From IMG/VR virus record IMGVR_UViG_3300049215_000176, positions 1 to 35,310 of that record: a DNA stretch of 35,310 nt; one strand, 5' to 3'. The translations under genes were made by a program, and so were the position numbers. How positions within the stretch are numbered: the first letter of the stretch is position 1; each line of letters opens with the position of its first letter. Source of the DNA: a virus. Positions 13,743 through 28,317 of this stretch are shown piece by piece. Below the pieces are notes generated by a model, which was not told where the DNA came from, ran no database searches, and saw nothing but the letters and a program-made list of their open reading frames with translations.

Positions 13743-14168
13743 TTAAAAGGGGATGCTATCGTCCACAATTTCTTGTTTTTTGGGCGTATCAACCCTGTCA
13801 ACCAAATAATCCACGATAGAGTTTTTATCCGGATATTCTCCGTTTTTATCTACCGCAATGCCCACCTTGGCCATGCCAGTTTTTCCGACAAAGTTATATG
13901 CCTCGATTTCGCCCTGCTCATATTGAGGCAGCAATCCGCTGGCCTCGGCCAAATGACGAAGCTTGAACTCCATCCAAGTTCCAGAAACATAATCAAAGAC
14001 ATTTTGGCTTTGACCAGAATCTTTGAAGATTTTGACCTTAAGTTTGAGCATGTCGTTTTGATTTTTATCCTTGGTTTCTTCCGATTCCAGGATTTCAAAA
14101 GCATATTCGCCCTTGGGCCAGACATTTTGTGATTGGATTTCTTTTTCAGTTTTTGCAGCAAATTTCAT
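13743..14168 (-). CDS. Single-stranded DNA-binding protein-like, 141 aa
   Basis: Starts MKFAAKTEKEIQSQNVWPKG, followed by an OB-like strand pattern (YAFEILESEET...MLKLKVKIFKD, then VFDYVSGTWMEFKLRHLAEA) as in DUF669-type phage proteins. It ends with the acidic tip VDDSIPF, typical of bacterial and phage SSBs that recruit partners with this tail. It lies next to the Sak4-like ATPase, a common pairing in which SSB coats DNA and Sak4 anneals or exchanges strands. Ribosome site AAAGGA upstream. The fold assignment is from pattern, not alignment. Confidence 0.65.
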   Translation of the reverse strand: MKFAAKTEKEIQSQNVWPKGEYAFEILESEETKDKNQNDMLKLKVKIFKDSGQSQNVFDYVSGTWMEFKLRHLAEASGLLPQYEQGEIEAYNFVGKTGMAKVGIAVDKNGEYPDKNSIVDYLVDRVDTPKKQEIVDDSIPF

Positions 14169-14186: not shown

Positions 14187-14891
14187 TTAAGCGTTTGCAA
14201 GTTTCTTCATATCAGCCAATGCTTCCGGTCCTTTATCATAGAATCGGCAAGGATTAATATCATAGCCACTGGCAGCATAAATAAGTTGAGCAGCCAATGG
14301 TGTATTGTGGAATTTCTCTAGAGCGTATCCTGCTTCACCCGCCAAATGCACAACCCATCCGGCGCGGCAATGAGTGGTTTGGCAAGAATGCCAATTAGAC
14401 ATATCCAGAGCGTAATCTTTGGAAACGGCTTCATAAACAACTTTATGAATGTTTTCAATGACCGGAACTATGGGAGCGCCTTTATATGGAGTAGCATCCG
14501 GATCGGCTTTTAGATCTTTTTTGTTCCACAGGAAAGCGGTATGAAAGCAGTCCGAGCAGTCCGAGCAGCGCGAGCAGTCCGAGCAGCGCGAGCAGTCCGA
14601 GCAGCCCGAGCAGCGCGAGCAGCGCGAGCAGCGCGAGCAGCCCGAGCAGCCCGAGCAGCCCGAGCAGTCCGAGCAGCGCGAGCAGCGCGAGCAGCGCGAG
14701 CAGTCCGAGCAGTCCGAGCAGCGCGAGCAGTCCGAGCAGCGCGAGCAGTCCGAGCAGCCCGAGCAGCGCGAGCAGTTAATACAATTTTTGCAATTCTCCA
14801 AACTTTTCAAAGCTTCTTCTGCTCGTTCTTTTGTGACGAAATATTCGACACTACATTTATTTCCATTTTCATCTTCGATCCAAGTGGTCAT
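14187..14891 (-). CDS. Cys-Ser-X triplet repeat protein with C-terminal 'THCRAGW' domain, 234 aa
   Basis: Residues 1-40 are an acidic/helical N-terminus ending CKNCINC. Residues 41-115 are 25 triplets of Ser-X-Cys with X only Arg, Asp or Gly. Residues about 140-234 form a separate domain with DMSNWHSCQTTHCRAGWVVH and LAGEAGYALEKFH; this domain recurs in phage and prophage proteins of unknown function, often downstream of Cys-rich segments. With some 30 cysteines the repeat could bind metal or make a rigid rod. The start overlaps the Sak4 stop by ATGA. The repeat DNA is strikingly uniform and GC-rich, suggesting recent expansion. Function unknown. Confidence 0.75.
   Translation of the reverse strand: MTTWIEDENGNKCSVEYFVTKERAEEALKSLENCKNCINCSRCSGCSDCSRCSDCSRCSDCSDCSRCSRCSRCSDCSGCSGCSGCSRCSRCSRCSGCSDCSRCSDCSRCSDCSDCFHTAFLWNKKDLKADPDATPYKGAPIVPVIENIHKVVYEAVSKDYALDMSNWHSCQTTHCRAGWVVHLAGEAGYALEKFHNTPLAAQLIYAASGYDINPCRFYDKGPEALADMKKLANA
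14547..14771. repeat. Coding minisatellite, 25 perfect-length 9-bp units
   Basis: On the plus strand the units are GCAGTCCGA, GCAGCGCGA or GCAGCCCGA, 25 in a row without length change. They encode Cys-Ser-X on the minus strand; only the X codon varies (CGC, GAC, GGC). An eight-unit order, R-G-D-R-D-R-D-D, occurs at both ends, 17 units apart, showing a block duplication within the array. Confidence 0.95.
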
Positions 14892-15796
14892 TGTTTAGTT
14901 TCCTTTGTTTGTTCAGTAGTTAAATAAGTTTTGTTCACGTAGTCGATGATTTTTTGAAGTTTGTCTTGGTCCATTTCAGCAAAAGATTCACAGTTGGCTG
15001 CCTTATACCATTTTTCAATCTGGCCCTCAGGCAGCTTAATCCTTGACACCAAATCTTCGACTGTTTTTATTTGTTCGGCAGTCGCCAACATTACTTGCTT
15101 TACCTGCCCTTCCAAGATTTCTCGGCCATATCTTTCCGCGAAGGTATCGTAAGACCATTCAAAAATGTCAGCATCCTTGAATCCCTCAAGCCTGGATTTG
15201 GTAACACGGGCCTTGTGTTGTCCAGCCATCTTGAAAATGTTCAGGCACAGGTGCAGCTCATATTCCAGCTTGTCATAGGCATCGAATGTCACGCCAATAA
15301 CTCCGCGCTGTTTCTTTTCGTCAAGACCGTAAAGATCTTTTTCATGTGCAATCAGCACAACATTCATATCCATGCGCGTAAGCCATGAAATCAGGCGGCG
15401 CATATATGCAACGGCAGGTTTTTTAGATGCACCGTAAACATCTTTGTCGCCTAATCGTTCAGTTTCTTTTGCAATTTCCAGACCAAAAATCTTGCTGATG
15501 CTATCAATAACCAAGGTTTTATATTGATGCTTTTCAGTTGCCAGTGCTTCCATCTGCTCAAGAACAGTATCAAAGGACAAAGATCCTTGATCCTTGCCAA
15601 GATACGCCCCTCCTGACTTCTTGAGCTTTGCAATGTAATGGGCCATGTCCGCCCCCGATTCAGTGTCAATGAAGAATACTGACGGGAAATCCATGCTGAC
15701 CCAGGTTTTCCCAACCCCAGGCTTGCCGAAAATTAAAACTTTAGGCTTGGACGGTTCGGCTGCTTTCGGGTCAACCGCCTTTAGCTTGCTTGCCAT
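14888..15796 (-). CDS. Sak4-like RecA-fold ATPase (single-strand annealing / recombination), 302 aa
   Basis: Walker A is GKPGVGKT at 24-31 and Walker B TLVIDS at 94-99, with a RecA-like core (FFIDTESGAD at 41-50, MNVVLIAHEK near 170). This is the AAA_24/Sak4 group of small phage ATPases that promote strand annealing with an SSB partner, here encoded nearby at 13743. The C-terminal ~80 residues form a helical extension (AEQIKTVEDLVSRIKLPEGQ, then YKAANCESFAEMD), similar to tails seen in this family. AAAGGAG ribosome site before ATG 15796; the region upstream separates it from the divergent VRR-NUC gene. Confidence 0.85.
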   Translation of the reverse strand: MASKLKAVDPKAAEPSKPKVLIFGKPGVGKTWVSMDFPSVFFIDTESGADMAHYIAKLKKSGGAYLGKDQGSLSFDTVLEQMEALATEKHQYKTLVIDSISKIFGLEIAKETERLGDKDVYGASKKPAVAYMRRLISWLTRMDMNVVLIAHEKDLYGLDEKKQRGVIGVTFDAYDKLEYELHLCLNIFKMAGQHKARVTKSRLEGFKDADIFEWSYDTFAERYGREILEGQVKQVMLATAEQIKTVEDLVSRIKLPEGQIEKWYKAANCESFAEMDQDKLQKIIDYVNKTYLTTEQTKETKQ

Positions 15797-15871: not shown

Positions 15872-16300
15872 ATGAAAAAAAATGATGAAACTTATCTACA
15901 TATCCACATTGTAAGTTTTCTGAGGAAATTACAGTTGGCGGGTATTGACTTTGTATTTTTTCATTGCCCTAACGGTGGTGGTAGAAGCAAATCAGAAGGC
16001 GCAATGCTGAAGATGATGGGTGTTTTGCCGGGGGTTCCGGACTTGTGTTTTTTGAGCGAAGAAGGAACATTTTTTGTTGAATTAAAAAAAATAGACGGCA
16101 AGCCATCTAAAGAACAAAAAAGATTTTTTGAGTGGACCAGGCGTTATAATGTAGAAACATATTTGGTTTGTCCTGAAGATGTAAGGACTGCAATATTGGT
16201 CATGGCAGATATTCTAGATATTAAGTTTCATGAAAAATATCACCACTTAATATCCCAAGTTTCATCTTCTTTTTTAGCAACGCTACCAGATCCTATATAG
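15872..16300 (+). CDS. VRR-NUC family nuclease, 142 aa, rightward inside leftward block
   Basis: Shows the compact PD-(D/E)xK pattern of VRR-NUC: HCPNGGGRSKSEGAMLKMMG (31-50), PGVPD with Asp57, FFVELKK with Glu70 and Lys72, then KPSKEQKRFFEW with Gln82. Free-standing VRR-NUC proteins are frequent in phages and likely act as structure-specific nucleases in replication or recombination. It is the only rightward gene between 9.8 and 20.2 kb. Its last 61 bases overlap, antisense, the end of the SF2 helicase gene, and its final ~20 residues may be an extension. Only a weak GGATCAAG ribosome site is visible. Confidence 0.88.
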   Translation: MKKNDETYLHIHIVSFLRKLQLAGIDFVFFHCPNGGGRSKSEGAMLKMMGVLPGVPDLCFLSEEGTFFVELKKIDGKPSKEQKRFFEWTRRYNVETYLVCPEDVRTAILVMADILDIKFHEKYHHLISQVSSSFLATLPDPI

Positions 16301-18003
16301 GTTAAGCTGGACACGTCGCCATGTTGTGGCTCTCGCAATACATCATGCCTGACAATCCTGTCAAACTTTCCTTCTTTGACAACAGATATAGTTTTAGGGA
16401 TAAGCAAATCATCACAAGCCAGATCATTGACTAAATCCTCAATGGTTTCCCAATTGTCAAGATTTGCGCCGTTCCTTTGTTTCCACCAGAATTCAGCTTT
16501 ATCTCTGGCTGCGCCTGAGTGCTGCAAACATATATATTCCTTGGTTGCTCTGCCATTTTCATGAAGATATTTCACCATTAAACAAGGTGTTTTTCCCTCT
16601 TTATTAACATTGTGCGCTGAATAGGTAACTCCCAAGACGTTTCTTTCATCAGGAATATTCGATATAATACCGCCATCATAAGATTCTGACAGGCCTACAG
16701 TCGTGTTTCTTGGAAATTCGCATCCACAATCTTTGCATTTACGTGCCGATAAATGATTTATTGTCGCGCATTCATCGCAAATTTTCATGGGCGGTGCGCC
16801 ATCACCAATCTTTTTAGATTTTTCTTTAGCCTTGATTTGGTCTAAAAATCCATGACGCTCAATATTCCTAGCAAAATCCAAAAACAGGCAATTCGGCTTT
16901 GCGCTGTCTGCAATTGATGCACGGCGTGCCTGTGCAGATTCCCCCCCAATCTTTCCAACTGTCCTTGTTCCTCGTCCGCCTATCTGCAATAAAAGCCCTG
17001 CAGACATTGTATGGCGTAACATACCAATCAGATCAATTTCAGGAATGTCAATGCCCGTTGTCCAAACACCATTGTTTGTAACAGCCCTTATTTTTCTGTC
17101 TGCAAATTGTGACTTTATTCTTTCGCGCTCTGACCGGGGGGTGTCGCCGACTACTGTTTCAGCAGCAATACCGCAGCGCCTTAGCTCATCACGAACTGCG
17201 AAGCTGTGCGCCACACCATTGCAAAAAATCAGCCATGTCCTGCGATCTTTTCCTTTTTCAATCATTTCCTGCACGGCTTGTGCGGTCAAGCGGTCAACGT
17301 TCGTGACAGTTTCTAACTGTTTCTGGTTAAACTCTCCCCCAGCTTTTCCTACGCCACTAATATCATAGATAGTTTTTGTGCCTTTGCTGACCAGGGGTGC
17401 TAAATAACCATCCTGGATTGCCAAACCTATGCCATAGTCAAAAATGATATCATCAAACAGCGCATCATCGCCATCCGTCAGGCTTCCCGTATCGGTCCTG
17501 AATGGCGTGGCCGAAAAGCCAACGATCCTTAGGCCAGGATTTTTTGCTTTCAGCTTTTCAATGAAAGTTTTCCACATGCTCTGATCTTTGCGGGATATAG
17601 ATTGGACTTCATCGACAATTAAAATGTTGGTAAACTCAGGCTCTGCGGAATATATAGACTGGATACCAGCAAAGACAAAATCTCCTGAAAGGTCTTTTTG
17701 TCCAAGCTCGGTGCTATAAAATGAAATGCTTAGCCCTGATTGCAGCTGCTGCAGCTTTTCAGCATTCTGGTTCAGTAATTCCGCAACATGCGTCCCTATG
17801 ATTATTCGAGCTGCAGGATTTGCCCTTTTTACGCGTTGGCAAAGCCTTCCTATGATGACGCTTTTTCCGGTGCCAGTCGCTGCGCATACAATAGGATTCT
17901 TTCCAGGATTTTCGCGCAGATATTTAATCGTAATATCAACAGCATTTTCCTGATAGGTGCGCGGAATAATCACATTTTGTGACACAAACAGATCTGCGGT
18001 CAT
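16240..18003 (-). CDS. SF2 DEAD/DEAH-box-type helicase with zinc-binding C-terminal part, 587 aa
   Basis: Start at ATG 18003 (ATGA overlap with the primase-helicase stop) is preferred to the 18024 start. Motifs: Q-like RTYQENAV (15-22), Walker A ATGTGKS (42-48), DEVQ (131-134), SATPFR (164-169), motif VI QIGGRGTR (340-347). A C-x2-C-x10-C-x2-C cluster (409-426, KICDECATIN...CKDCGC) probably binds zinc. This domain order is common in phage helicases related to restriction-enzyme and UvsW-like translocases that unwind or remodel recombination and replication intermediates. It works next to the primase-helicase gene; an antisense overlap with the VRR-NUC gene lies at its 3' end. Confidence 0.88.
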   Translation of the reverse strand: MTADLFVSQNVIIPRTYQENAVDITIKYLRENPGKNPIVCAATGTGKSVIIGRLCQRVKRANPAARIIIGTHVAELLNQNAEKLQQLQSGLSISFYSTELGQKDLSGDFVFAGIQSIYSAEPEFTNILIVDEVQSISRKDQSMWKTFIEKLKAKNPGLRIVGFSATPFRTDTGSLTDGDDALFDDIIFDYGIGLAIQDGYLAPLVSKGTKTIYDISGVGKAGGEFNQKQLETVTNVDRLTAQAVQEMIEKGKDRRTWLIFCNGVAHSFAVRDELRRCGIAAETVVGDTPRSERERIKSQFADRKIRAVTNNGVWTTGIDIPEIDLIGMLRHTMSAGLLLQIGGRGTRTVGKIGGESAQARRASIADSAKPNCLFLDFARNIERHGFLDQIKAKEKSKKIGDGAPPMKICDECATINHLSARKCKDCGCEFPRNTTVGLSESYDGGIISNIPDERNVLGVTYSAHNVNKEGKTPCLMVKYLHENGRATKEYICLQHSGAARDKAEFWWKQRNGANLDNWETIEDLVNDLACDDLLIPKTISVVKEGKFDRIVRHDVLREPQHGDVSSLTYIGSGSVAKKEDETWDIKW

Positions 18004-20177
18004 TGAGCGTCTTCCCTGCACCATAATCTCATACTTTTCTTATACTTCTGGTGCCAAACAACCCTGCTTTGGTAGTTATTCATTTTCAAGATAGTAGCTA
18101 CGCGCTTCATGGTTTTTTCGTTTTTTTCAGTTAGTCTTAGGTCCAGCTTCTCCATAACTTGATCAATTTTGAATTCATCCAGACCTATTTTGTCAATCGC
18201 AGACAAGACCATATCTTCCCAGGCATCGGAGGCCAGTCTTTTTTTACGCTCATAATCAGCCAGTAAGTTTTCTTCTGGTGTGGGGCCTATATAAATTCCA
18301 TCCTTATATAGCTGAACGGCCTCTGCCCACAATTGTCCTTTTATTTCATCTATTTTTTGTATGTCTATGATCTTGTCAATCGTCAGCGGCCAATATCTTC
18401 TATTGCCAGTTGGATCTTTCAGATAATATGAATTATTTGTAGTCGCCGCGAACACAAACTGTCTAGGAAACTTGCTGACCTCACGATTATAGGGCAATCT
18501 TACTTCGTCAATTTCCTGCGTCAGCCAATTTTTAACCGCATTATCGTCCTTGGCGCTGAAACCATCTAATTCTGCCAACTCAATAATTATATTGCCCTGC
18601 AGCTTTAAAATCGTGTCTTTATCTCCCAACGCTCCAATATTGACTGCATCGGTGTGGTAGCGCTCGCCATTGAAAGTTGCCAGACATTTCAATAGGGCTG
18701 ATTTATACAATCCTTGTTGCTGGCTTTCGAAAACCAACATGTGATCGAACTTGCAGCCAGGATTAAATATCCTCGTGACTGCTGCGCACATCCATTTTTT
18801 GAAGATAAATGATAAATATCTTTGATCTTCTTCTTTACATCCCAGATCTTCAATCAAAAATCTTTCTAAGCGTGGTGTCTTGTCCCACTTCAGCGTATTC
18901 AGATATTCCCGTGCGGAGTGAAATTTATTTTCATCGGCCACTACACCGATAGCTTTCGCGACTTTTTCAATGGTTGGTGTTAGTCCATAGGCTTCAAGAG
19001 TTGCCGCACATTGGGTTATATGGATGTCTGAAAGTGATCCGACTTTAAATTTTTCTTCTTCAGTCCATATCGGACACTGTTTTATCAGCACAGCTTGTTT
19101 GAATTCGTCAAAATAAAATGTATCTTTAAAGTCTTCATGATACATAAGGTGCAAAATTATGTTGGCCAGACTTGTTCCGACAATGCGCTCTTTGCTGTCC
19201 AGAATTAATTTGCTTGCCCAAGCAACGGGGACCAGATTTCCTTTATCTGACAGCGAATCAAGAACAGGATTCTGGTCCCCGCCCTCTTGCACACCAAAAG
19301 CCTTTTTTGTGGCTTCCGATGGAAGATCATTAAAGTCTGCGCCAATTATGGGGCAAATTATGCTAGTAGAATTTGTTACATTCTTTACAATTTTTGCCGC
19401 CGCCTTTTGGCCCGTCTGACTTTCATCATTGTCGGCTGCCACCACAATAGGGGCAAACTTATAAATTTTCCTTAAATTTTTAGCAACGGGCAGTAGATTC
19501 CCAGCATCCAGTGCCACCACTACACAATCTGTTCCGGTTGCCTCTTTAATGCTGCAACCAGTGGCCCAGCCTTCACATATTATAATATTTTTTGTTGGAT
19601 TTATTTGCCCAATTATTGCAAAACATCCATTTTTTTTGCCACCAAATGGGAATTTCTTTACCCCATCTTCTTCAATGGTTTGCCAGGATACTAAATCTAG
19701 TTCACCATCCTTTTGCAGCTCATAAACAGGTATCCATAGCAATCTTTGCCCATAGATGCCCGCTGAATGCAGCTGAATATGTTTGGCTTCATTATATAGG
19801 GTTCCGCCAGACTTCTTACACAGAGCCCATTTCTGCTTTGCCCTTTGAGCTATTTTTACATGACGTTCGGCAATCTGGCGATCTTGCTCCAGCTGCCTTT
19901 GCTTTATTATGGTCTTTATCGCGGCAAGATCAGCCCTGGTTATATTTTCTTCGTCTATAACACTATTAAACCGTGCTTCTATACCTGTTTTGAAATCCTT
20001 TGCATATCCATAAGCAAATTCTTTTTCAATCCTTAACCAGTAACTAATAGATCTCTTGCCACCGCGATCTGTTTCGCTGGCAATACGCCTGAACCTGTTT
20101 GTTGGAATTATGTTTATATCTTTGGGTATGATACCCGAATTCACAATAAACGTAATAAACTTGGATGTGAAATCCAT
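18000..20177 (-). CDS. Toprim / VapE-type primase-helicase, 725 aa
   Basis: I chose ATG 20177 because AGGGGAAAG precedes it; the frame extends to 20228. Residues about 184-290 have Toprim features: IIICEGWATG with Glu202 and VVAADNDES near 245-253. The C-terminal half is a virulence-associated E (SF3-like) helicase: QGLYKS (488-493) as modified Walker A, IIELAELDGF (531-540) as Walker B, FVFAATTNN sensor (574-582), and the family end motif GNRRYWP (591-597). Such proteins prime and unwind DNA for genomes that lack their own polymerase. It is the first gene of the leftward unit, beside the candidate origin. Confidence 0.88.
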   Translation of the reverse strand: MDFTSKFITFIVNSGIIPKDINIIPTNRFRRIASETDRGGKRSISYWLRIEKEFAYGYAKDFKTGIEARFNSVIDEENITRADLAAIKTIIKQRQLEQDRQIAERHVKIAQRAKQKWALCKKSGGTLYNEAKHIQLHSAGIYGQRLLWIPVYELQKDGELDLVSWQTIEEDGVKKFPFGGKKNGCFAIIGQINPTKNIIICEGWATGCSIKEATGTDCVVVALDAGNLLPVAKNLRKIYKFAPIVVAADNDESQTGQKAAAKIVKNVTNSTSIICPIIGADFNDLPSEATKKAFGVQEGGDQNPVLDSLSDKGNLVPVAWASKLILDSKERIVGTSLANIILHLMYHEDFKDTFYFDEFKQAVLIKQCPIWTEEEKFKVGSLSDIHITQCAATLEAYGLTPTIEKVAKAIGVVADENKFHSAREYLNTLKWDKTPRLERFLIEDLGCKEEDQRYLSFIFKKWMCAAVTRIFNPGCKFDHMLVFESQQQGLYKSALLKCLATFNGERYHTDAVNIGALGDKDTILKLQGNIIIELAELDGFSAKDDNAVKNWLTQEIDEVRLPYNREVSKFPRQFVFAATTNNSYYLKDPTGNRRYWPLTIDKIIDIQKIDEIKGQLWAEAVQLYKDGIYIGPTPEENLLADYERKKRLASDAWEDMVLSAIDKIGLDEFKIDQVMEKLDLRLTEKNEKTMKRVATILKMNNYQSRVVWHQKYKKSMRLWCREDAQ

Positions 20178-20211
20178 GTCTTTCCCCTGTTCTTTTTTCG
20201 CTGTTGAACAA

Positions 20212-20241
20212 AGGATAGATCGGGACAAAGCAGGATGTAAA
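20212..20241 (-). promoter_or_regulatory. Possible leftward promoter for the replication genes
   Basis: On the minus strand TTTACA (20241-20236) and TATCCT (20217-20212) with 18 bases between them; the spacing is acceptable but the -10 is weak. It would start transcription about 30 bases before ATG 20177. Confidence 0.3.
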
Positions 20242-26069: not shown

Positions 26070-26990
26070 ATGGGACTGATGGAAGAAATTGAAGAAACTA
26101 AAAAGCAACTTGCTGAAGCTGTCAAAGCTGAAGATAAAGAACCTGAGCAAGAGGAAGAAGTTGAAAAAACATCTGAAGCTGCTCCAGAAGAAGAAGCGCA
26201 AGAAGCTGAAGCAGATAGCAAAGAAACTGCTGAAGAGCAGCCTGATCCTGCTGCTGAAAAGCCTGATGATTCTAGCTTTGCTCGGATGCGTAGGGAGAAA
26301 AAGGCGCTAGAGCGCCGCGTTCAAGAGCTTGAAGCAAGACAAAATCAAGCTCCTGTTCATGAAGAGCCGAAGAAGGTTGAGGCGGTTGCTGACGCAGATC
26401 CCGAGCCGGATCGTCAGGTTAAATATGAGGCTTGGCTTGAATGGAATCTGCGTCAGCACAAAAAAGAGCTTGCCGAGATCAAAGGTACTGTTGCAAAAAC
26501 AACACAGCTAACTGAGCGTGAGCGCTTGGTTAATGCCGCAGTGCAAGAGTTTCAGGGATATGAAGCTGATTATAGGGCTGTAAACCCCTCATATGATAAA
26601 GCAGCTGAGTTCTATACCAAAGAGCTGACGCGCAGTTTCAAGCTTCTTAATCCTAAGATTTCATCTGCTGAAGCTGGTGAATTGATCAGGAATACGGTTC
26701 TTAATAAAGCATCTTCTTACGCCAAACTTGGCCTTGATCCTGCTGAAGAACTTTACAATGAAGCGGTTTCGTTTGGTTTTAGGGATAACCAAGAAGAATC
26801 GATTCAGGAAGAAGTCAAGCCTAGTCTTAGAAAGATTGCCGCTAATAAATCGCGTAATTCTGGCATGGCCGGAGCCAAGGGCCGCGGTACTGGCGGACCT
26901 CTGACGCGTGAAGCGGCATCTGAGCTTAGTGTTGCAGAATGGGCGAAGCTTTCTCAATCTGAGAAAAAGCGCCTGTTGACTGGCGGATGA
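26070..26990 (+). CDS. Capsid scaffolding protein, 306 aa
   Basis: Highly acidic, Glu-rich first 80 residues (MEEIEETKKQLAEAVKAEDK and on) followed by a coiled coil (MRREKKALERRVQELEARQN) and a basic C-terminus (NKSRNSGMAGAKGRG, then SEKKRLLTGG), the usual layout of a scaffolding protein with a charged capsid-binding end. It sits between portal and capsid genes. AAAGGAG ribosome site before the start. The last codons overlap the promoter for the capsid gene. Confidence 0.85.
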   Translation: MGLMEEIEETKKQLAEAVKAEDKEPEQEEEVEKTSEAAPEEEAQEAEADSKETAEEQPDPAAEKPDDSSFARMRREKKALERRVQELEARQNQAPVHEEPKKVEAVADADPEPDRQVKYEAWLEWNLRQHKKELAEIKGTVAKTTQLTERERLVNAAVQEFQGYEADYRAVNPSYDKAAEFYTKELTRSFKLLNPKISSAEAGELIRNTVLNKASSYAKLGLDPAEELYNEAVSFGFRDNQEESIQEEVKPSLRKIAANKSRNSGMAGAKGRGTGGPLTREAASELSVAEWAKLSQSEKKRLLTGG

Positions 26991-27004
26991 TATTAATATA
27001 TTCT
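26976..27004 (+). promoter_or_regulatory. Promoter for the major capsid gene
   Basis: TTGACT (26976-26981), exactly 17 bases, then TATTCT (26999-27004). It lies in the last codons of the scaffold gene and would give a roughly 180-base leader for the capsid transcript, allowing extra capsid expression. Confidence 0.55.
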
Positions 27005-27010
27005 TAACAA

Positions 27011-27192
27011 AAGTCCTCGCCAGACTTAAACCCGGCAGGCTGGAACAAGCTTAAATGTTCCGTTTAGCGCAACGTAAAAGCGCCACCGCACCACGATTCG
27101 CCCACGTTACGGGCAGGGGGCGCAATACCTCTGTAAAAACCTTGTTCGCGGTTGATGTGTTTACTTTCATCAACAACTGACAAGGGGAAACT
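27011..27192 (+). promoter_or_regulatory. Structured 5' leader of the capsid message
   Basis: No ORF is evident. Potential hairpins: GGAACA (27042-27047) with TGTTCC (27056-27061); GCCC-ACGTTAC-GGGC near 27108; GTTGATG (27151-27157) with CATCAAC (27168-27174) just before the AAGGGG ribosome site. The leader is GC-richer than most intergenic DNA here. A role in message stability or translation control is inference. Confidence 0.45.
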
Positions 27193-28317
27193 ATGTCAAG
27201 TACAACTATGAGTTCTGCCAATTCTCTGACCCGTAAGCTATGGGCTACAGAAGATTGGGTTAACATGGGCCAACGAACGATGTTCGGCCACATGTTCAAA
27301 CGCGGCTCCGTCTTTTATGTCGAGGAATTCCTCGGCTCTAAAGCTCGCGGCGATCAAATCACCTATGATTATACCAACAAACTGACGGGCATTCCGATTG
27401 GTGAAGGTGGTACGCTGGACGGTAACGAAGAAGCCCTGAACCTGGGTTCGTTCGTTATGGCGATCAACGTAACGCGTATCGGCGTTCTTAACCCGAACGA
27501 TGACACGATTGAGCAACAGCGAACGCTGGTTGATTTCCCGGATCGTACCCGTCAAGTCATCCCGAACCGTCATGCAGAGCTTCTGGATACCTCGGTATTC
27601 TATCAGCTCGGCGGCTCGGCTCCGACTTCGTTTACCCTGAACGGCACGACCTGGAGCGGCAACAACCGTTTTTTTGTCTGGGGTCACAACACGCCCCCGG
27701 CTCCGTCTACCAATCGTATTATTCGTGCTGGCGCAGCTGCCAACGATCAGTCGCTGACTTCGGCAAACACGATGACGCTCGATCTGATCGATTATGCTCT
27801 GGAGAAAATCGATAACTCGGATCAGCCGATTGATCGTCTGGACGATGATACTTACGATCTGTATGTATCTCCGGAACAGCTTGTCGATCTGAAGCAGGAT
27901 ACGACCGGTCGCATTCAATGGTTCAACATTGAATTGGCACAGATCACTGGTGGCGATAGCGAAGCTGTTAACATCAGCCCGTTCCAGGCTAAGCGTCCGC
28001 AAGCTCAATATGCCGGTGTCAATATTTACTCGGCACCGCGTGTAGCTTACGGCCTGAATAGCTCGACTTCGGCAGTCATCACGACCGTTCGTCGTGCTGT
28101 TCTGGTTGGCAAGAACGCCCTGTCGTTTGCATCGCCGTTTGGTGGCCGTCCGTCTGACAATTCCACTCCGCTGAAATATTTCTCGCAGTTGAAAGACTAT
28201 GAATATTTCAAAGGTCTGGAAGGCCGACTGATCTATGGCGCTAAAAAGACTGTTCCGTCGAATGGCGAGGACATCGGCGTCATGGTTATTTCCACCTATG
28301 CAGCCGCTCATAGCTAA
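27193..28317 (+). CDS. Major capsid protein (N4-gp56-type), 374 aa
   Basis: Start MSSTTMSSANSLTRKLWATE; then DQITYDYTNKLTGIPIGEGG and NVTRIGVLNPNDDTIEQQR-like segments followed by YDLYVSPEQLVDLKQDTTGR and a C-terminal DYEYFKGLEGRLIYGAKKT. This pattern is that of the N4 gp56/DUF4043 major capsid family found in many podoviruses. The gene has a strong AAGGGG ribosome site and a codon choice visibly more C/G-ended than its neighbours, as expected for the most abundant virion protein; this also leaves the opposite strand open over 505 codons. Confidence 0.85.
   Translation: MSSTTMSSANSLTRKLWATEDWVNMGQRTMFGHMFKRGSVFYVEEFLGSKARGDQITYDYTNKLTGIPIGEGGTLDGNEEALNLGSFVMAINVTRIGVLNPNDDTIEQQRTLVDFPDRTRQVIPNRHAELLDTSVFYQLGGSAPTSFTLNGTTWSGNNRFFVWGHNTPPAPSTNRIIRAGAAANDQSLTSANTMTLDLIDYALEKIDNSDQPIDRLDDDTYDLYVSPEQLVDLKQDTTGRIQWFNIELAQITGGDSEAVNISPFQAKRPQAQYAGVNIYSAPRVAYGLNSSTSAVITTVRRAVLVGKNALSFASPFGGRPSDNSTPLKYFSQLKDYEYFKGLEGRLIYGAKKTVPSNGEDIGVMVISTYAAAHS

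What the first reader, a model, noticed from the sequence alone, without database searches (positions are those of the whole stretch)
14547..14771. Perfect 9-bp coding minisatellite giving 25 Cys-Ser-X triplets
All units have the same length, every Cys is TGC and every Ser TCG; only the third codon changes between CGC, GAC and GGC. The order R-G-D-R-D-R-D-D recurs at both ends, so a block of eight units was duplicated inside the array. Such uniform DNA within a phage gene implies recent slippage or recombination and probable copy-number variation between phages. The encoded cysteine rod, joined to a THCRAGW domain and placed between Sak4 and SSB genes, has no known function and is the strongest candidate for an undescribed phage factor.
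Basis: partly seen in the sequence, partly recalled or inferred. Interest (0 to 1): 0.8.

Follow-up and report, generated by a model that had tools for sequence, protein, structure and literature searches.

The report
Shuffled cysteine-triplet rod in phage protein
Many uncultured phages carry, usually among their DNA-recombination genes, a protein whose middle is a rod of three-residue Cys-Ser-X steps; the steps are constantly re-copied and re-ordered while a mixture of exposed X residues is kept, the evolutionary pattern known from fast-evolving recognition repeats.

Summary
The array is real: 25 nine-base units (minus strand 14550-14774, 3 bp from the quoted place) encoding (Cys-Ser-X)25 inside a 234-aa gene coupled to Sak4 (ATGA overlap) and followed by an SSB gene. 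An exact 77-bp block recurs at both ends. It is one member of a phage family (hundreds of IMG/VR loci; one cultured phage found, FL-1): a small N-terminal cap, 4 to about 60 units, and a conserved 'WHxC..THCRAGW' domain. The same C-terminal domain also sits behind pentapeptide repeats, a known beta-helix. Within an array every synonymous base is usually fixed, while the two X-codon bases are mixed D/G/R(/Y); between phages the synonymous bases differ. Linked synonymous markers show that each X type is a clonal unit lineage, swept within its type but not displacing the others. Paralogues in one phage share 98% identical caps and C-domains but have different arrays. Same-motif minisatellites outside the family lack this X mixture. 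Best reading: a Cys-core solenoid with a rapidly reshuffled, selectively mixed surface, probably a binding rod serving the recombination module. The fold is only partly supported by AlphaFold and the partner is unknown.

The parts
14187..14891 (-). Rod gene, 234 aa: cap + (CSX)25 + linker + C-terminal domain; start codon overlaps the Sak4 stop (ATGA, 14888-14891)
   Evidence: relatives
14775..14891 (-). N-terminal cap (residues 1-39, MTTWIEDENGNKCSVEYF...LENCKNCIN), conserved with relatives; confidently modelled
14550..14774 (-). 25 x 9-bp array, (Cys-Ser-[R/D/G])25
14703..14774 (-). Units 1-8, X order RGDRDRDD (first copy of the duplicated block)
14550..14621 (-). Units 18-25, X order RGDRDRDD (second copy of the duplicated block)
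14190..14471 (-). C-terminal domain (residues 141-234) with WHxC..THCRAGW motif, shared with pentapeptide-repeat proteins
14888..15796 (-). Sak4-like ssDNA-annealing ATPase, upstream in the same operon
   Evidence: AAA_24 5.8e-21; phrog_124 6.1e-20
13743..14168 (-). SSB-like protein (DUF669 / phrog_378), 18 bp downstream
16240..18024 (-). DNA helicase, same strand and module
18000..20228 (-). VapE-like primase/helicase, same strand and module

Best explanation
The gene makes an intracellular phage protein with a small N-terminal cap, a regular rod of Cys-Ser-X triplets and a helical C-terminal domain. SHOWN: the same C-terminal domain is carried behind pentapeptide-repeat rods; arrays are rewritten quickly by copying and shuffling whole units; synonymous bases are homogenised inside each array while a mixture of X residues (D, G, R, sometimes Y, H, N, S) is kept in nearly all; unit types behave as clonal alleles that sweep within their type without displacing the others. 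INFERRED: the rod is a beta-solenoid with Cys facing inward and X outward; selection keeps a mixed surface because the rod binds a partner along its length; the rewriting is done by unequal recombination or annealing, which phage recombinases coded next door could promote; the protein serves the replication/recombination module or counters a host factor acting there.
For: Heterozygosity per unit base over 111 arrays: wobble positions .005/.035/.012, X codon .444/.475; X bases polymorphic in 107 and 109 of 111, Ser wobble in 12. Between arrays the Ser codon is TCG, TCC, TCT, TCA, AGT or AGC. Linkage: L147 Tyr 11/11 on TCA and all D/G/R on TCG; L084 Asp 8/8 on TCA; L130 Gly 19/19 on TCT with R and Y only on TCC; L056 and L144 similar. 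Control: 33 non-family arrays of the same 9-bp motif are nearly monomorphic at X (.09/.18) against .44/.44 in 25 family arrays. L172: two paralogues in one contig, cap and C-domain 98% identical DNA, arrays 46 and 53 units in different order; L075: three copies with the same cap and different arrays. Pentapeptide rods on the same C-domain show the same pattern: wobble fixed, non-core codons variable. AlphaFold puts a bridge every third residue (32-53) right after the cap in two runs. Neighbours: YqaJ/RecE nuclease, ERF, Sak4, NinB.
Against: AlphaFold loses confidence (pLDDT below 50) beyond about residue 55, so the solenoid is not demonstrated through the array; no solved structure matches (weak hit to a beetle antifreeze beta-helix, E 0.02). 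Selection for the mixture could be for solubility or folding rather than for binding. No partner, expression or phenotype is known. Several copies are frame-shifted (FL-1, L446, L308), so the gene is dispensable or error-prone in some phages. Short-read assemblies can misjoin such arrays.
Confidence: 0.5

Rival explanations
1. Structural spacer: the rod only holds cap and C-terminal domain apart; the D/R/G mixture is selected for solubility and correct folding, not for recognition.
For: X residues are nearly all polar or turn-forming (NRY codons); unit order is close to random in the unbiased set ('new'); length varies widely.
Against: A solubility need could be met by a fixed alternation and would not require within-type sweeps and constant reshuffling; pentapeptide rods on the same C-domain also keep their variants mixed.
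Confidence: 0.22
2. Metal- or redox-active cysteine store (metallothionein-like), X residues being incidental.
For: One third of the array is Cys with CxxC spacing throughout; the C-domain has conserved H and C.
Against: The Cys rod is interchangeable with pentapeptide rods that mostly lack Cys on the same C-domain, so Cys chemistry is not needed for the shared function; the X mixture is not explained.
Confidence: 0.14
3. DNA-mimic rod of the pentapeptide type (MfpA/Qnr-like) acting on gyrase or a recombination protein.
For: Shares its C-domain with pentapeptide-repeat proteins, a fold known to mimic B-DNA (established knowledge); sits in recombination modules.
Against: Charge is mixed, not uniformly acidic: the window array has 11 R and 9 D; 16 of 75 arrays are net positive (a set biased by its search pattern).
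Confidence: 0.12
4. Neutral coding minisatellite: slippage expands the array, nothing selects X.
For: Block duplications and large copy-number change.
Against: Neutral X sites should be no more variable than fourfold Ser sites, but are about 13 times more so; non-family arrays of the same motif lack the mixture; frame, cap and C-domain are conserved across distant phages.
Confidence: 0.05

Closest known systems
Pentapeptide-repeat proteins (Pfam PF00805), including those with the same C-terminal domain (L098, L100, L106, L112, and a Bordetella plasmid copy)
   Same: Same C-terminal domain, tandem short repeats, and the same pattern of fixed synonymous bases with variable non-core codons.
   Different: Five-residue A-D-L-x-x units with a hydrophobic core instead of three-residue Cys units; different N-terminal cap; the triplet array does not match PF00805.
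High-internal-conservation (HIC) WD40 repeats of the fungal NLR genes het-d/het-e (PMC12222747)
   Same: Repeats kept nearly identical by concerted evolution, unit number and order polymorphic, and only a few surface codons variable under diversifying selection. Works-like comparison only.
   Different: No sequence relation; 9-bp units instead of whole WD40 repeats; phage, no NLR, partner unknown; selection here is inferred from the synonymous/X contrast, not from a codon model.
PHROG families 15341 and 31265 (unknown function)
   Same: The window protein matches both (E 4.8e-21 and 4.8e-25): cap/array part and C-terminal part.
   Different: These are unannotated clusters; no function, architecture or repeat behaviour is recorded.
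Tenebrio antifreeze protein 1EZG (Cys-containing beta-helix)
   Same: Only PDB sequence hit, E 0.02, Cys/Ser-rich short-coil beta-helix.
   Different: 12-residue coil, secreted and disulfide-bonded (established knowledge); the similarity is probably compositional.

Membership tests
Pentapeptide-repeat protein (PF00805) | Tandem A(D/N)LXX units recognised by the Pfam model | tested here: not met
   No Pfam family at E<=0.1 for the window protein; units are three residues
Pentapeptide-repeat protein (PF00805) | Right-handed quadrilateral beta-helix fold | tested here: inconclusive
   Bridges every third residue over residues 32-53, then low confidence; Foldseek finds nothing
WHxC..THCRAGW C-terminal domain family (this family) | C-terminal domain with invariant M, C, H-C, G, AG..G pattern | tested here: met
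   Alignment A1 and hits in phages and genomes
HIC-type recognition repeats | Repeats homogenised at synonymous sites, variable at few codons, unit number polymorphic | tested here: met
HIC-type recognition repeats | Variable residues lie on a binding surface and set specificity | not testable with these tools
   Needs a structure and a partner
Metallothionein-like metal binder | Stoichiometric metal-thiolate clusters | not testable with these tools
   No biochemical data; no metallothionein model matched in Pfam
DNA mimic of MfpA/Qnr type | Strongly acidic rod surface | tested here: not met
   Window array R11, D9, G5; mixed charge in relatives
Anti-phage defence protein | Match to a PADLOC model | tested here: not met
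   0 families for P0001

The most novel reading that the evidence does not exclude
Phages carry a combinatorial recognition system: a common C-terminal domain is combined with interchangeable solenoid rods (Cys triplets, pentapeptides, perhaps LRR-like) written from a small alphabet of unit types whose order and number are reshuffled by recombination and kept diverse by an arms race with a host or competitor target, a viral counterpart of HIC or TALE-like repeat recognition, built on a previously undescribed three-residue Cys-core solenoid.
Probability: 0.25. Interest if true: 0.88.

Novelty: new variant of a known kind. Interest (0 to 1): 0.68.

Why it matters
It would be the smallest unit (9 bp, 3 residues) known to me to show the homogenised-core, mixed-surface signature of recognition repeats, and in viruses of many bacterial phyla. 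The family gives a natural experiment (two rod types on one C-terminal domain, paralogues with different arrays in one phage) that makes questions about how viruses diversify repeat proteins, and what their recombination-module orphans do, directly testable. A three-residue Cys-core solenoid would also be a new protein-fold building block.

Tried and rejected
(1) Charge alternation: RR depletion and DR enrichment at neighbouring units in the first loci is an ascertainment artefact, since those loci were fetched with the peptide pattern DCSRCSDC; loci fetched by the C-domain do not show it. Rejected. (2) Copy-number differences at 100% identical flanks (L001/L003, L055/L067) may be reassemblies of one sample, so they are not used as proof; L032/L037, L070/L097, L172 and L075 carry that argument. 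(3) Codon preference as the reason for uniform codons: rejected for the window. (4) A universal DNA motif as the selected feature: rejected by different Ser/Cys codons between arrays. (5) Diversity-generating-retroelement-type or other targeted mutation: not needed; linkage shows clonal unit types, and the G/C transversion at position 7 is not A-directed. (6) Foldseek on both models gave noise. (7) Literature searches for a Cys tripeptide repeat or a phage repeat system of this kind found none; the library held is open-access only. (8) Tree-based counts (28 Ser-codon changes) rest on a poorly resolved 99-column tree and are only rough.

Full report
Observation. The array is exactly as described except for a 3-bp offset: 25 units at 14550-14774 on the minus strand, every Cys TGC, every Ser TCG, X = CGC/GAC/GGC, X string RGDRDRDDRRRDGGGRRRGDRDRDD, with RGDRDRDD at both ends as an exact 77-bp repeat. 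TRF gives it by far the highest score in the window. The gene (14187-14891, 234 aa) starts inside the stop of a Sak4-like gene (ATGA) and is followed 18 bp later by an SSB-like gene; helicase and VapE-like primase genes lie upstream on the same strand. The window is a 35.3-kb IMG/VR virus record with terminase, portal and major head protein.

Family. 113 stretches in IMG/VR encode relatives of the whole protein, 420 and 380 stretches match C-domain profiles (overlapping sets), and 36 loci lie in bacterial genomes, in Alpha- and Betaproteobacteria, Xanthomonas, Bacteroidota, Acidobacteria, Patescibacteria and others; seven genomes checked hold one or two copies each. Among deposited phages only Flavobacterium phage FL-1 was found; it has about 36 triplets and a frame shift in the C-domain. 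Arrays run from 4 to about 60 units. At least two N-terminal caps (WIxDxNGNKCS... and KIF.DY..FL.R.DK..NGVS...), a third (GNIGVSY...) and rare other C-termini occur. Of deduplicated C-domain loci, 74 carry Cys triplets and 56 pentapeptide repeats (the two searches were aimed at the two forms, so this is not a natural ratio); one truncated locus shows LRR-like repeats (L096). So one C-domain is served by different repeat rods.

Signature of evolution. For 111 distinct arrays the mean heterozygosity at the nine unit bases is 0, 0.005, 0, 0.035.444.475.012: synonymous positions are fixed inside an array, the first two bases of the X codon are mixed in nearly all. The zeros at bases 1, 2, 4 and 5 follow partly from counting only Cys-Ser units; the informative contrast is between the wobble bases and the X bases. 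Between arrays the synonymous state differs (TCG, TCC, TCT, TCA, AGT/AGC; TGC or TGT; NNC or NNT), even crossing between the two Ser codon families, which needs replacement of a whole array from few founders. In the window the fixed codons are not the genome's preferred ones. Neutral turnover would remove X variation as it removes synonymous variation; it does not.

Unit types as alleles. In the few arrays with two synonymous states the state is tied to X: Tyr only on TCA in L147 (11/11), Asp only on TCA in L084 (8/8), Gly on TCT in L130 (19 of 19 Gly, with R and Y only on TCC), Gly on TCG in L056 (6 of 7) and on TCA in L144 (6 of 7). L057 (two Gly sublineages) and L005 (Cys wobble) are less clear-cut. 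A new variant therefore swept through the units of one X type without replacing the other types. This is what balancing selection for a mixture, with copying of whole units, predicts. As a control, arrays of the same DNA motif that lie outside the family (33 arrays found by the same pattern search) are nearly uniform at the X bases (.09/.18, deviants usually a single unit), against .44/.44 in 25 family arrays. The pentapeptide arrays on the same C-domain behave alike: in L105 only 2 of 15 bases vary over 14 units, in codons 4 and 5, which are outward-facing in the known fold (49 arrays; orientation from established knowledge of the PF00805 fold).

Speed. L172 holds two paralogues with 98% identical cap and C-domain DNA but 46 and 53 units in different order. 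L075 holds three copies with one cap sequence and three arrays. L032/L037 (93% identical flanks) have 26 and 59 units, L070/L097 (92%) 28 and 22. Pairs with 100% flanks may be reassemblies. The longest exact repeat inside arrays has a median of 53 bp and a maximum of 133 bp (77 bp in the window), within reach of long k-mers, so most orders should be trustworthy, but a ceiling imposed by assembly is likely; the Bosea copy has an N gap exactly in the array (L091).

Structure and context. Two AlphaFold runs agree: confident cap, then isolated bridges at every third residue from 32 to 53, then loss of confidence; the C-domain is helical. Foldseek and PDB sequence searches find no relative; the only weak hit is a beetle antifreeze beta-helix. 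The solenoid is therefore inferred from this start, from Cys invariance against X variability, and from replacement by a known solenoid. Downstream genes in 142 scanned ORFs include YqaJ/RecE-type nucleases (9-10), ERF annealing proteins (8), NinB/Orf, Sak4, Rad52 and SSB types, and HNH nucleases, so the recombination-module setting recurs, although no formal background rate was computed.

Judgement. Shown: architecture, family, concerted evolution with mixed X, clonal unit types, rapid rewriting, shared C-domain with pentapeptide proteins. Inferred: Cys-core solenoid, selection for a mixed binding surface, recombinase-driven shuffling, function in or against the recombination machinery. The evolutionary pattern matches that described for HIC repeats of fungal NLRs (PMC12222747), which is a works-like comparison, not membership. 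I score it 0.68: a specialist would be surprised by the unit-type behaviour and the swap with pentapeptide rods, but fold and partner remain unproven.

Noticed in passing
L172:1504-3300: Two tandem paralogues of the rod gene in one phage contig with near-identical ends and different arrays.
   Followed up: yes
L075:2953-6900: Three rod genes in one phage sharing an identical cap, with different arrays and different short tails lacking the usual C-domain.
   Followed up: partly
L082 (KY421186.2, about 26400-27271): Flavobacterium phage FL-1 has an unannotated 36-triplet array; its C-domain is frame-shifted, and only the 3' part is annotated as a CDS.
   Followed up: partly
L303, L284, L288: Cys-triplet arrays with other caps and other C-termini (CGCFxGDL... 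type; a divergent THCLSGW form).
   Followed up: no
L096:1-409: The same C-terminal domain behind LRR-like repeats (LTVGGGLYLSGTPITALP), possibly a third rod type.
   Followed up: no
L446, L308, L150, L434, L462: Arrays with internal frame shifts (CSX changing to LLG or AP frames): assembly errors or slippage by non-multiples of nine.
   Followed up: no
window 15872-16300 (+): Small plus-strand gene resembling phrog_824 and, weakly, endonuclease and Holliday-junction resolvase families, next to the Sak4-rod-SSB operon.
   Followed up: no
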